Assembly (NCBI RefSeq): GCF_014750655.1
Contig: NZ_JABBXD010000001.1
Location: 295,102 to 359,101, forward strand
Origin: Salinimonas profundi
GTDB taxonomy: Bacteria; Pseudomonadota; Gammaproteobacteria; Enterobacterales; Alteromonadaceae
Direction: 5' to 3'
DNA: 64,000 nucleotides
The notes below the pieces were generated by a model, which was not told the DNA's origin, did no database searches, and saw nothing but the letters and a program-made list of their open reading frames with translations. This document shows, piece after piece, positions 24,740 through 27,476 of this stretch. Numbering within the stretch: the first letter of the stretch is position 1; each line of letters begins with the position of its first letter. A program made the translations under genes and the position numbers.

Positions 24740-25522
24740 ATGGGCAGTTTGGTTTGTGTAGGACCGGGTATGATTGTTGGTGCGCATTTATCAGCACGGT
24801 GCCGCAGCCATATCGTCAATGCCGATATCATTTTTAGCAGTTGCCATCCACTGATGGAGGACTGGCTTAAAACCCTCAATAATAACTATCATTCATTGCA
24901 GCCGCTTTACGGCGAAAATAAAAACCGCCGGATTACCTATCAACAAATGGTTACGCGAATGATCTCAGCGGTGCGAGAGGGCAAGCGCGTTGTAGGCGTA
25001 TTCTACGGCCACCCCGGCGTGTTCGCCCAAGTGCCTCACCAGGCGATTGCACAGGCTCGTGAAGAAGGTTTTACCGCTTCGATGGAGCCCGGAATATCTG
25101 CCGAGGATTGCCTTTACGCAGACCTGGGAATCGATCCCGGTGCCTATGGTTGCCAGCATATGGAAACCACGCAGTTTATGATTTATCAGCGGGTGCTGGA
25201 CACCTGCGGTTATGTCATTTTGTGGCAAGTGGCGCTGGCGGGCGATATCAGCCTGTCCAAACGAATGAGCAGCAGCGCTGAAAGAAAAGTATTAGTTAAA
25301 CTACTGATGAATTTTTACCCATCAGATCATTCTGTTACATTGTATGAATGCCCGACGCTGATTACTGACACTTTTCGGGCTGAAACCATACCACTGGAAA
25401 AATTGACAGAGGCTAAACTGTCACAGGTGACGACGCTGGTGATCCCTCCGGCCAACCGACTAAAAAAGAATGAAGTCGTAAGCGCTGAATTAGCCGCTAT
25501 TTCTGAGTACACCGGAGACTAA
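24740..25522 (+). CDS. Borosin-type peptide backbone N-methyltransferase (OphMA/SonM-like, split form)
   Basis: A 260-residue SAM-dependent enzyme of the tetrapyrrole-methylase fold with the specific signature of borosin alpha-N-methyltransferases. SAM-site turn CVGPG (6-10); the catalytic stretch KNRRITYQQM (61-70), in which Arg63 and Tyr67 align with the OphMA active-site Arg72/Tyr76 and Tyr57 with Tyr66; FYGHPGVF (88-95); and the block MEPGISAEDCLYADLGIDP (115-133). These are nearly identical to fungal omphalotin synthase OphMA and to Shewanella SonM as I remember them. Unlike OphMA it carries no precursor at its C-terminus, so it is the split bacterial form. It would methylate backbone amides of a separate precursor; the 72-residue gene two bases downstream is the obvious candidate. 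Confidence 0.87.
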   Translation: MGSLVCVGPGMIVGAHLSARCRSHIVNADIIFSSCHPLMEDWLKTLNNNYHSLQPLYGENKNRRITYQQMVTRMISAVREGKRVVGVFYGHPGVFAQVPHQAIAQAREEGFTASMEPGISAEDCLYADLGIDPGAYGCQHMETTQFMIYQRVLDTCGYVILWQVALAGDISLSKRMSSSAERKVLVKLLMNFYPSDHSVTLYECPTLITDTFRAETIPLEKLTEAKLSQVTTLVIPPANRLKKNEVVSAELAAISEYTGD

Positions 25523-25524
25523 AT

Positions 25525-25743
25525 ATGAACGCAGCAGAGCTTTGTGCAATGTTGGGCGAAAACACTGAAATGGACATCGCCAACTTAAGCAAATCACAAC
25601 AAGCAGCCATCGAACAATGGAAAGCCCAGGCAGAGATAATGAATGCCTCTCTGTCTGTCGCAGAGCCTACCGACCCGTCAGACCCCGTGCCGGATCCGGT
25701 TCCGGAACCTGATGACTACCCAAAGGATCCTGAGTTTTTCTGA
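25525..25743 (+). CDS. Candidate split-borosin precursor peptide (72 aa, Pro/acid tail)
   Basis: A 72-residue protein starting two bases after the methyltransferase stop, with GGAG as ribosome binding site. Residues 1-45 are helical (AELCAMLGENTEM, then ANLSKSQQAAIEQWKAQAEI) and faintly resemble the borosin-binding domain of SonA, which has an LGQDAQLMED segment and a GLTDEQINAV segment, but it is shorter. Residues 47-72 are nine Pro and nine acidic residues with a DPVPDPVPEP run, ending EFF. It sits exactly where a split-borosin precursor should be. The tail is unlike known hydrophobic cores, and Pro nitrogens cannot be methylated, so it may instead be an accessory or binding protein. Confidence 0.65.
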   Translation: MNAAELCAMLGENTEMDIANLSKSQQAAIEQWKAQAEIMNASLSVAEPTDPSDPVPDPVPEPDDYPKDPEFF

Positions 25744-25748
25744 CGTTC

Positions 25749-27476
25749 ATGCGTATCTTCCTGCTCCTCATTTTCTTAAGCACAGTGATACCCGCTTTTG
25801 CTGATACCAACGCGATGTTAGAAGAGGCTGACTCGCTAAGGCTGGCTGATCCTAAAAAAGCAAAACAGATATTGGATGATCTTGACCGAGAGTCATTGGG
25901 CATCGAAGAACAATACACCTATGACTATATCACTATCTATATCAGCACATTTATGGAGCAGAACTTAGGAAAGACCATCAAACGCTATGAAGCGTTTATT
26001 AAGCGGATACCGGATAGCCCGGCAAAAGTGCGGGCGATGACATCTTTGTTGGGATTGTCAGCATATAAAGGTCACTGGCCCAGGAGCTTTGCGCTGGTGT
26101 CCGAGTTGACGTCGCTGATGAATCGTATCGACGCGCATGAAGTGGAGCCGGATGCTTATAATGGCCTGGTGCTATTTTACAATGAAGTCGAGCAGCCAGA
26201 CATGGCAATCTCTTACGCGCAAAAAATCTTCAGTCATCCCGCTGCGACATCTTATCATCAATGTATAGCGCTAACCGAGCAGGCGTTTAACCTCGCTATC
26301 TCAGAGCCAGCTAAAATATCGGATGACGATTTTTATGATGCCATTGAGCTTTGTGGCGCGGTCCCTTTGCCTTACTACGTCGCGGTTAATTATAACAATT
26401 TGCTTGATTTTCTGATTGATAAACAAGCTTACACCGAAGCATCCTTAATTGTAAGCGAAGCGACTAAACATGTCGAAGCCATCGACTTTAAATATCTGAC
26501 CGCCAGTTTACTTCTCATTAAAGCGAAATTAAAGGTTGCCGCTTCTGAACCCGAACAAGCCAAACAGTACGCCTTGCAGGTCCTTGAGGCTGATGCAGAT
26601 AAAGAATACCGGGAGTCATTGATTTCCGCCTATTCAATTTTGGCCAACATTGCCGCTGAACAACAGCAATATGAGCAGGCTTATGAATATGAAAAAAAGC
26701 ATCGCGAACTGTCAGTTTCCTTATACAATCAAAAAGTAACAAAATCCCTGGCGATCCAGGAAGCGCGGTTTGATTTACAGGCAAAAGAAAGTCAGATCGA
26801 CCTACTGGATAAAAAAAATCAGTTGCTTTCTACAGAATCGAAGCTGGTTAAGGAACAAATCAGCAGCATGCTGTTGGTGATTGGCCTGGCATTGCTGGTG
26901 GTAGTTATGTTGCTGTTCTGGTCTTATCGCGCCCGGAAAACCCAAAAGCGGCTTCACTATCTGGCCAGCACCGACCATCTCACTGGCATCAATAACCGTG
27001 GATACTTTAGTGAGAAGAGCAAAGCGATTCTTACTAACGCTGAAAAATCGGAATCCTCTGTGTCGCTTATATTTATCGATCTTGACCATTTCAAGACGAT
27101 TAACGACGCTTATGGCCATAAAGTAGGTGACTGGGTATTAGTGAAAGTGGTTGAGTCCCTCAAAGCACTCACAGCAGCAAAAGGTATGCAAATAGGCAGA
27201 GTAGGCGGCGAGGAATTTGGCATCATCTTGCCTGATACTGACAGCATTGCAGCAAAAGATTTTGCTGAGCAGTGCAGAGAAACTATTCAGAAAATTGACA
27301 CCTTTGATACAGGCTCACATTTCCAGGTTACCGCCAGTTTTGGTATCGCTGATACGGGTGAGGCCGGCTATAATTTGGATAACCTTTTTTCAGCGGCGGA
27401 TTTAGCGCTGTATCAGTCGAAAAAGTACGGGCGAAATCGGGTGTGTTGTTACCAAAGCGATAAAATCGATTTATAG
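25749..27476 (+). CDS. Periplasmic TPR sensor diguanylate cyclase (GGDEF)
   Basis: A 575-residue inner-membrane protein. Signal peptide 1-18; a periplasmic region of TPR-like helical repeats (about 20-345, for example YEQAYEYEKKHRELS); a coiled linker; one membrane helix (371-393); and a cytoplasmic GGDEF domain with GGEEF at 486-490, an active-type signature that makes cyclic di-GMP from two GTP. No RxxD inhibitory site is seen before GGEEF. It starts five bases after the 72-residue gene with no clear ribosome binding site of its own, so translation is probably coupled to the borosin-like genes. TPR input suggests sensing of a peptide or protein. Confidence 0.9.
   Translation: MRIFLLLIFLSTVIPAFADTNAMLEEADSLRLADPKKAKQILDDLDRESLGIEEQYTYDYITIYISTFMEQNLGKTIKRYEAFIKRIPDSPAKVRAMTSLLGLSAYKGHWPRSFALVSELTSLMNRIDAHEVEPDAYNGLVLFYNEVEQPDMAISYAQKIFSHPAATSYHQCIALTEQAFNLAISEPAKISDDDFYDAIELCGAVPLPYYVAVNYNNLLDFLIDKQAYTEASLIVSEATKHVEAIDFKYLTASLLLIKAKLKVAASEPEQAKQYALQVLEADADKEYRESLISAYSILANIAAEQQQYEQAYEYEKKHRELSVSLYNQKVTKSLAIQEARFDLQAKESQIDLLDKKNQLLSTESKLVKEQISSMLLVIGLALLVVVMLLFWSYRARKTQKRLHYLASTDHLTGINNRGYFSEKSKAILTNAEKSESSVSLIFIDLDHFKTINDAYGHKVGDWVLVKVVESLKALTAAKGMQIGRVGGEEFGIILPDTDSIAAKDFAEQCRETIQKIDTFDTGSHFQVTASFGIADTGEAGYNLDNLFSAADLALYQSKKYGRNRVCCYQSDKIDL

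What the first reader, a model, noticed from the sequence alone, without database searches (positions are those of the whole stretch)
24740..25743. Split-borosin (backbone N-methylated RiPP) locus
The methyltransferase carries the complete borosin signature: KNRRxTYxQM with the catalytic Arg/Tyr positions of OphMA, FYGHPGVF and MEPGISAEDCLYADLGIDP. It is free-standing, like SonM of Shewanella. A 72-residue gene follows after two bases with its own ribosome binding site, where a precursor would be. The enzyme class methylates peptide backbone amides, which is rare in biology. The candidate precursor does not look like known ones, so this may be a new borosin subtype.
Basis: partly seen in the sequence, partly recalled or inferred. 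Interest (0 to 1): 0.9.

Follow-up and report, generated by a model that had tools for sequence, protein, structure and literature searches.

The report
Methylated-peptide plus sensor gene cassette
A marine bacterium carries a three-gene cassette: an enzyme of a class that methylates the backbone of peptides, a small acidic protein that is probably its substrate, and a membrane sensor that makes a second messenger; relatives keep the trio together, which suggests that these rare methylated peptides have to do with signalling.

Summary
Four SonM active-site residues mutated in print are present. The 72-residue ORF after it is a real, selected gene (dN/dS 0.17); in 11 of 11 genomes where it is detectable alone it lies directly behind such an enzyme.

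Of 156 enzyme places examined, 152 have a related sensor just downstream, 3 just upstream, 1 is a contig end. Outputs are swapped (GGDEF or histidine kinase) while the input stays homologous.

The precursor is a shortened relative of SonA: leader 42-45 residues against a median of 59 elsewhere, a trait of Alteromonadaceae. SonA homology shows only through intermediate profiles.

Methylation, mature product and peptide sensing are inferred, not shown. A GGDEF domain is named in a published borosin figure legend, so the association is partly known.

The parts
24740..25522 (+). borosin-type peptide backbone alpha-N-methyltransferase (SonM-like), 260 aa
   Evidence: PF00590 E 4.5e-16; SonM 7ltc E 2.5e-70, OphMA 2.9e-37, CbiF 0.0063; Y57, R63, Y67, Y89 invariant in an alignment of 25 homologs
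25514..25517 (+). likely ribosome binding site (GGAG) of the precursor gene
   Evidence: read from the sequence
25525..25743 (+). candidate precursor, 72 aa
   Evidence: conserved adjacency; dN/dS 0.165 vs G004
25525..25650 (+). precursor leader (aa 1-42): two predicted helices (3-12, 23-38), probably a shortened relative of the SonA borosin-binding domain
   Evidence: AlphaFold2 mean pLDDT 74; profile link through long-leader precursors
25651..25668 (+). predicted core LSVAEP (aa 43-48); L43 and V45 proposed as N-methylation sites by analogy with SonA L63/I65
   Evidence: alignment A2; SonA sites from PMC8429565; inference
25669..25740 (+). acidic, proline-rich C-terminal tail (aa 49-72)
   Evidence: 1 nonsynonymous against 9 synonymous changes vs G004, dN/dS 0.018, on 16 synonymous sites
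25749..27476 (+). membrane sensor: signal-like segment, predicted periplasmic TPR-like solenoid, transmembrane helix, GGDEF (GGEEF) diguanylate cyclase, 575 aa
   Evidence: PF00990 E 3.6e-41; AlphaFold2 mean pLDDT 93; related gene at 155 of 156 enzyme places
25806..26669 (+). predicted periplasmic TPR-like domain of the sensor (aa 20-307), with the Cys pair C172/C202
   Evidence: helical hairpins in the model; homologous to inputs with TPR_12 over cut-off such as L116; in the window protein itself TPR_12 reaches only E 0.1. Cys pair in 98 of 99 GGDEF-type sensors
26859..26915 (+). transmembrane helix (aa 371-389)
   Evidence: highest 19-residue hydropathy, 2.95
26964..27440 (+). GGDEF domain, aa 406-564; motif GGEEF at 486-490; no RxxD at the usual inhibitory-site position (recalled)

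Best explanation
The locus is a three-gene split-borosin signalling cassette. (1) The SonM-like enzyme binds the short helical leader of the 72-aa precursor and N-methylates backbone amides in the hydrophobic core just behind it, most likely L43 and V45 of ...NASLSVAEPTDP... (2) A general protease, not encoded here, releases a methylated, protease-resistant peptide. (3) That peptide, or the modified precursor, is read by the co-encoded sensor, whose predicted periplasmic TPR-like solenoid is coupled through one membrane helix to a diguanylate cyclase, so that peptide state sets c-di-GMP level. Shown here: enzyme class, reality and conservation of the precursor, conservation of the sensor, homology of the input domain under swapped outputs. 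Inferred: methylation and its sites, cleavage, topology, how the peptide reaches the periplasm, and that it is the ligand. My odds: enzyme is a peptide N-methyltransferase acting on this precursor 0.9; sites L43/V45 0.5; sensor responds to the product 0.5.
For: Enzyme: SonM E 2.5e-70, OphMA 2.9e-37, precorrin-4 enzyme 0.0063; in a quick tree of 146 rows SonM and 143 relatives stand apart from the same genome's CysG and RsmI at SH-aLRT 99, though those two outgroup branches are very long. Precursor: 11 of 11 detectable homologs directly behind the enzyme; a pattern script found a leader + acidic-tail ORF at 100 of 123 distinct loci. Sensor: a tblastn match (E <= 1e-8 to any of five sensors) downstream on the same strand within 2.5 kb at 152 of 156 places, upstream at 3; chance is about 1.2% per place (my arithmetic from 40 GGDEF matches in 4,070,309 bases). 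From the sensor side, 34 matches at E <= 2.1e-10 in 60 genomes, 29 in enzyme cassettes, four of these being second sensors (my count). Of 113 distinct loci with a called sensor 100 have GGDEF, 13 not; six of the 13 were scanned and all are histidine kinases; inputs of both kinds align over 361 columns, probability 99.95. Precursor-to-sensor gap: median 13 nt, 68 of 93 within 30 nt (58 of 93 counted from the first ATG); enzyme-to-precursor: median 63 nt, 27 of 93. In L106 precursor and sensor are duplicated together behind one enzyme. In L036 and L115, where the enzyme lies behind the sensor, a SonA-like small ORF still stands directly before the sensor or overlapping its open frame. In two orphan-sensor loci the enzyme is absent and what looks like a precursor's C-terminal end precedes the sensor.
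Against: No methylation or ligand data. The precursor shows no signal peptide by eye, whereas the input domain is predicted periplasmic, and no exporter or protease is conserved in the cassette. Five of the 34 sensors stand without an enzyme in the 7 kb fetched (G025, G011, G028, G035, G023), as do two kinase-type ones (G007, G018), so the sensor does not strictly need it. Enzyme distances track the input domain no better than the GGDEF domain (Spearman 0.63 vs 0.65; clade A 0.69 vs 0.79). The Cys pair is not conserved in the 13 kinase-type entries. No precursor was identified in L037 and L153. The input-domain comparison had no control TPR family, and TPR matches among the fold hits were not seen: the 50 rows shown cover the GGDEF domain or PleD-type proteins.
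Confidence: 0.55

Rival explanations
1. Ordinary RiPP natural product: the methylated peptide is a secreted metabolite (for competition or metal handling), and the sensor only regulates its production or the lifestyle in which it is made.
For: Fungal borosins are bioactive metabolites (PMC8429565, introduction); sensors persist without the enzyme in some genomes.
Against: No exporter, protease or immunity gene is conserved in the cassette (by eye); the sensor is tied more tightly to the precursor gene than the enzyme is and is duplicated with it in L106.
Confidence: 0.25
2. The modified 72-aa protein is not cleaved: it works as a cytoplasmic small protein that docks on the sensor's cytoplasmic part, methylation stiffening its core.
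For: No protease in the cassette; no signal peptide on the precursor by eye; the acidic tail is under the strongest constraint between G000 and G004 (dN/dS 0.018 vs 0.297 for aa 1-48).
Against: The tail diverges freely across the wider family; the tail comparison rests on one species pair and 16 synonymous sites.
Confidence: 0.2
3. The enzyme is a borosin methyltransferase, but its substrate is another peptide and the 72-aa ORF is a regulatory small protein of the sensor.
For: Direct similarity of the ORF to SonA is absent; its gene is generally closer to the sensor than to the enzyme.
Against: Long-leader homologs in the same gene position match the SonA leader (E 9e-8; 6e-5 with the SonA-like row left out) and the window family matches those (score 41.9 vs at most 23.1 in 60 column shuffles).
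Confidence: 0.07
4. A tetrapyrrole (uroporphyrinogen/precorrin) methylase beside an unrelated small ORF.
For: Shares the TP_methylase fold family (PF00590); the NCBIfam matches are YabN and cobalamin/siroheme enzymes, all far below their cut-offs.
Against: SonM and OphMA outscore the precorrin enzymes by over 100 bits; four SonM active-site residues conserved; the genome's own CysG lies elsewhere and outside the clade.
Confidence: 0.01

Closest known systems
Type IV split borosin SonM-SonA of Shewanella oneidensis (SO1478/SO1479; PDB 7LTC and others)
   Same: Free-standing alpha-N-methyltransferase with the same four mutated active-site residues; separate short precursor gene adjacent; hydrophobic core behind a helical leader. 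A 92%-identical SonM relative (L249) also has a sensor match downstream.
   Different: Enzyme 48% identical; precursor leader about 42 aa with two predicted helices against a five-helix domain of 53; core followed by an acidic PD-rich tail; no direct sequence match to SonA.
Fused fungal borosins (OphMA, dbOphMA)
   Same: Same enzyme family, E 6e-36 to 6e-40.
   Different: Fungal enzyme and core are one polypeptide (PMC8429565); here they are separate genes.
Borosin types V-X and Class 4 ('no BBD identified') as summarised in PMC11395268
   Same: That paper's Figure 1 legend lists a class with separate enzyme and core and no BBD, and explains the label GGDEF.
   Different: Could not be compared: the defining papers (Imani 2022, Cho 2022) are not held and the figure itself was not seen.
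Diguanylate cyclases and histidine kinases with TPR-like input domains
   Same: GGDEF domain resembles solved cyclases (3ign, WspR, DgcB); HisKA/HATPase in six relatives and receiver domains in three of them.
   Different: Here the input domain is linked to a peptide-methylating enzyme and its precursor.

Membership tests
Borosin alpha-N-methyltransferase | closer to OphMA/SonM than to any tetrapyrrole methylase | tested here: met
   SonM 2.5e-70, OphMA 2.9e-37, CbiF 0.0063; CysG and RsmI apart at SH-aLRT 99 (quick tree, long outgroup branches)
Borosin alpha-N-methyltransferase | active-site residues SonM Y58, R67, Y71, Y93 | tested here: met
   window Y57, R63, Y67, Y89; invariant in 25 aligned homologs; roles from PMC8429565
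Split borosin (type IV) | enzyme and precursor encoded by separate adjacent genes | tested here: met
   11 of 11; script picks at 100 of 123 distinct loci (L148's pick is wrong and some start codons are doubtful). Of the 23 misses most show a small ORF that my pattern rejected, L036 and L115 have one before the sensor, L037 and L153 none found
Split borosin (type IV) | precursor carries a borosin-binding domain like SonA 1-53 | tested here: inconclusive
   no direct match; indirect match through long-leader relatives; model shows two helices instead of five
Split borosin (type IV) | backbone N-methylation of the precursor core | not testable with these tools
   needs mass spectrometry
Borosin types V-X | type-specific architectures of Imani 2022 and Cho 2022 | not tested
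   papers not held
Uroporphyrinogen/precorrin methylases | passes the curated cut-off of an equivalog model | tested here: not met
   cobM_cbiF 18 bits vs 259.65; cobA_cysG_Cterm 12.7 vs 185; YabN 52.2 vs 525
Diguanylate cyclase (third gene) | GGDEF domain with intact GG[DE]EF motif | tested here: met
   PF00990 3.6e-41, GGEEF at aa 486-490
TPR domain (third gene) | TPR model over its cut-off | tested here: inconclusive
   window protein TPR_12 E 0.1, 13.3 bits vs 30.1; kinase-type relative L116 TPR_12 51.4 bits, over the cut-off; inputs align over 361 columns; model shows helical hairpins

The most novel reading that the evidence does not exclude
Across Alteromonadaceae, Shewanella, Colwellia, Rheinheimera and Lysobacterales relatives, backbone N-methylated ribosomal peptides are not toxins but ligands of a dedicated family of periplasmic TPR-type receptors. 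The backbone methyl groups would make the peptide protease-proof and able to cross the membrane, so a cytoplasmically made peptide could reach a periplasmic receptor without an exporter. Receptors with interchangeable outputs (diguanylate cyclase, histidine kinase, hybrid kinase) would turn this one peptide chemistry into a modular signalling system.
Probability: 0.35. Interest if true: 0.88.

Novelty: new variant of a known kind. Interest (0 to 1): 0.62.

Why it matters
The paper that described split borosins states that none of the pathways was yet tied to a final natural product (PMC8429565, Discussion passage). The near-constant third gene gives a concrete, testable role: peptide-controlled c-di-GMP or phosphorelay signalling. 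The short-leader precursors also suggest how little of the leader domain the enzyme may need, which matters for engineering N-methylated peptides.

Tried and rejected
Tetrapyrrole methylase: rejected. Direct search of the precursor in Pfam, NCBIfam and PDB: nothing significant. Fold search with the precursor model: two matches, E 5.9 and 9.9, meaningless (pLDDT 74). The second structural library was not available. Promoter and terminator scan: no site on the cassette strand, and both counts within one standard deviation of shuffles. Special coevolution of enzyme with the input domain: not seen. Single origin of the short leader: the quick tree groups 42 rows at 99, but the careful tree of 66 rows needs 2 changes, with one origin not ruled out. 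I considered a fused enzyme-acetyltransferase in L107; the open frame is continuous and has both domains, but the enzyme's C-terminus there differs from its sister L103, so a frameshift joining two overlapping genes is as likely.

Limits: loci and 7/31 overlap (same genomes under different names); 123 of 136 enzyme entries were distinct, while the 156 places are not deduplicated and come from 155 loci taken because they have an enzyme. A tblastn hit can rest on the output domain alone. In one search, 116 of 394 genomes matched, but by my hand count 21 of these reach only E 1e-6 to 1e-3 and are probably ordinary tetrapyrrole methylases. Leader lengths: core position was found by three different patterns for the groups; group A had 24 picks of 26 loci and group B 14 of 14, all with a core; the other loci were limited to picks of 75 aa or more (52 of 56 with a core, median 59); without that limit it is 53 of 58, median 59, range 42-95, L148 and duplicates left out, L136 and L152 in neither group. 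The gap figures chose the sensor start nearest the precursor, which favours short gaps; I use instead, where no such choice was made.

Full report
What is there. On the + strand three genes follow one another: 24740-25522 (260 aa), 25525-25743 (72 aa, two bases on, GGAG at 25514-25517) and 25749-27476 (575 aa, five bases on). Upstream and opposite are an asparaginase (PF00710) and a DUF2797 gene.

The enzyme. Pfam sees only the broad TP_methylase fold (E 4.5e-16). The PDB search orders its relatives clearly: SonM 2.5e-70 (240 bits), dbOphM 5.8e-40, OphMA 2.9e-37, then a drop to precorrin-4 methylase at 0.0063. Curated tetrapyrrole models stay far below their cut-offs. The residues whose mutation slowed SonM in PMC8429565 (Y58, R67, Y71, Y93) are Y57, R63, Y67 and Y89 here and are invariant in an alignment of 25 homologs chosen for diversity. 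In a quick tree of 146 rows the genome's own CysG and RsmI stand apart at SH-aLRT 99, on very long branches (these two names are mine from their sequences, family PF00590).

The small protein. Against the ortholog in G004 it has dN/dS 0.165, and the other two frames hold 3 to 7 stops. Searched alone it is found at E <= 1e-3 in 11 of 60 genomes, each time directly behind an enzyme match. Twenty orthologs share the pattern: short leader, then a hydrophobic stretch and E/D/K-P, then an acidic proline-rich tail. Placing the core by its first proline, L43 and V45 correspond to SonA L63 and I65, the sites shown methylated (PMC8429565); this is inference.

Is the leader a borosin-binding domain? Direct tests fail: no PDB match, profile against SonA E about 900, and the model has two helices, 3-12 and 23-38 (pLDDT 74), against five in SonA 1-53 (PMC8429565). 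But other lineages (Rheinheimera, Colwellia, Shewanella, Lysobacter and others) mostly have 80-105 aa precursors in the same place. A profile of 32 of these hits SonA 1-53 (8.9e-8 to 9.3e-8; 6e-5 when the SonA-like row is left out), and the window family aligns to it over 66 columns (rebuilt score 41.9 against at most 23.1 in 60 column shuffles). Leader length is 42-45 in the window's group (24 picks), 37-44 in the genome's second group (14 picks) and median 59, range 42-95, in 53 of 58 others. I conclude that this is a cut-down leader that arose within Alteromonadaceae, once or twice.

The third gene. The 575-aa protein has a hydrophobic N-terminus, a helical-repeat domain to about residue 307, one strong membrane helix (371-389) and a GGDEF domain. 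That the repeat domain is TPR-like rests on the model (pLDDT 93) and on homology to inputs such as L116 that pass the TPR_12 cut-off; in the window protein itself TPR_12 is at E 0.1. That it is periplasmic rests on hydropathy. The 50 fold hits shown match the GGDEF part or PleD-type proteins. It has GGEEF at 486-490; where the family consensus has RxxD the window has AKGM, so product inhibition may be missing (inference). C172 and C202 are present in 98 of 99 GGDEF-type sensors; no Cys column reaches 60% in the 13 kinase-type entries.

How general is the trio? In 155 loci taken for having the enzyme, 156 enzyme places were tested: 152 have a sensor match downstream on the same strand within 2.5 kb, 3 just upstream, and 1 (L136) ends at the contig edge inside what looks like the same gene. 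The set is redundant (123 of 136 earlier entries distinct). Chance would be about 1.2% per place. From the other side, the sensor's input domain alone gave 34 matches at E <= 2.1e-10 in 60 genomes, a threshold I set afterwards; 29 lie in enzyme cassettes, four of them second sensors, and 5 do not (counted). The output varies: of 113 distinct loci with a called sensor 100 carry GGDEF and 13 do not (one sensor is counted twice there because two enzymes share it). Of these 13 I scanned six by Pfam, finding HisKA and HATPase in all six and receiver domains in three. The inputs of both kinds align end to end (361 columns). SonM's close relative L249 (92% identical) has the sensor match too.

Which genes are most tightly bound? 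Precursor to sensor: median gap 13 nt, 68 of 93 within 30 nt, or 58 of 93 from the first ATG. Enzyme to precursor: median 63 nt, 27 of 93; in 27 of 113 loci an ORF of 150-215 aa lies between, a GNAT acetyltransferase in the two I scanned. In L106 one enzyme is followed, after a GNAT-like ORF, by precursor-sensor-precursor-sensor, and in L108 the first sensor seems to have decayed to a GGDEF piece. In L036 and L115 the enzyme lies behind the sensor, yet a SonA-like small ORF stands before the sensor or overlaps its open frame. In G025 and G018, which have no enzyme match anywhere, what looks like the C-terminal end of a precursor precedes the sensor. So precursor and sensor tend to travel together, and enzyme plus leader seem to be lost together.

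Mechanism. I read this as a peptide-sensor cassette: the enzyme stiffens and protects a short hydrophobic core, and the peptide acts through the sensor on c-di-GMP, in relatives on a phosphorelay. The weak links are the missing protease and exporter, the precursor's lack of a signal peptide, sensors that persist alone, and the absence of preferential coevolution of enzyme and input domain.

What is known. Split borosins, their adjacency to short precursors and their spread in bacteria are in print (PMC8429565, parts 1-3 of 10 and passages; PMC11285071, passages; PMC11395268, part 1 of 5 and passages). The label GGDEF is explained in the Figure 1 legend of PMC11395268, so some association is known. 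In the held library 'borosin' with 'GGDEF' gave 1 paper, and with 'Alteromonas' or 'tetratricopeptide' gave 0; 'diguanylate cyclase' with 'RiPP', 'precursor peptide' and 'methyltransferase' gave 0. The two defining papers of types V-X are not held, so I make no claim that the trio or the short leader is unpublished.

Verdict. The finding is real and mostly rightly read: a new variant of split borosin. The larger interest lies in the conserved sensor, which turns an orphan peptide chemistry into a testable signalling hypothesis.

Noticed in passing
G000:C2:180329-183602 (L031, 1476-4815): The same genome holds a second cassette: enzyme (51% identical), GNAT acetyltransferase, a 66-70 aa precursor with core WCLMVPEKDD, and its own GGDEF sensor.
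   Followed up: yes
L031, L033, L103, L139, L145, L150, L175 and others: An ORF of 150-215 aa, Acetyltransf_3 in the two scanned, lies between enzyme and precursor in 27 of 113 distinct loci; it may acetylate the precursor.
   Followed up: partly
L107:5472-6779: Enzyme and acetyltransferase lie in one 436-aa open frame; fusion or frameshift.
   Followed up: partly
L106 (G015:C15), L108 (G079:C17): Precursor and sensor duplicated as a pair behind one enzyme in L106; in L108 the first sensor seems to have decayed to a 145-aa GGDEF piece.
   Followed up: yes
L095, L097, L199: Two different precursor-like genes in a row before the sensor; one in L095/L097 ends right after its core (TLSINAPMG) with no acidic tail.
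   Followed up: no
window:24740-27476 vs L079: Synonymous divergence differs sharply along the cassette between G000 and G004: enzyme 0.15, precursor 0.67, sensor 0.77 with its GGDEF part saturated; a recombination breakpoint near the enzyme's end is possible.
   Followed up: no
L094, L096, L098-L100, L093, L091, L101, L140, L181, L182: A second long ORF, with the GGDEF motif or Pfam match in most of them, follows the first sensor; no second precursor was called between them.
   Followed up: no
G148, G163, G239, G259, G277, G287, G392: Enzyme copies with in-frame stops in seven genomes of one family (f7), suggesting decay of one of several copies.
   Followed up: no
G048:C1:2612145-2613720 (L040): Two tandem enzyme genes share one precursor-like ORF and one histidine kinase with TPR repeats.
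   Followed up: no
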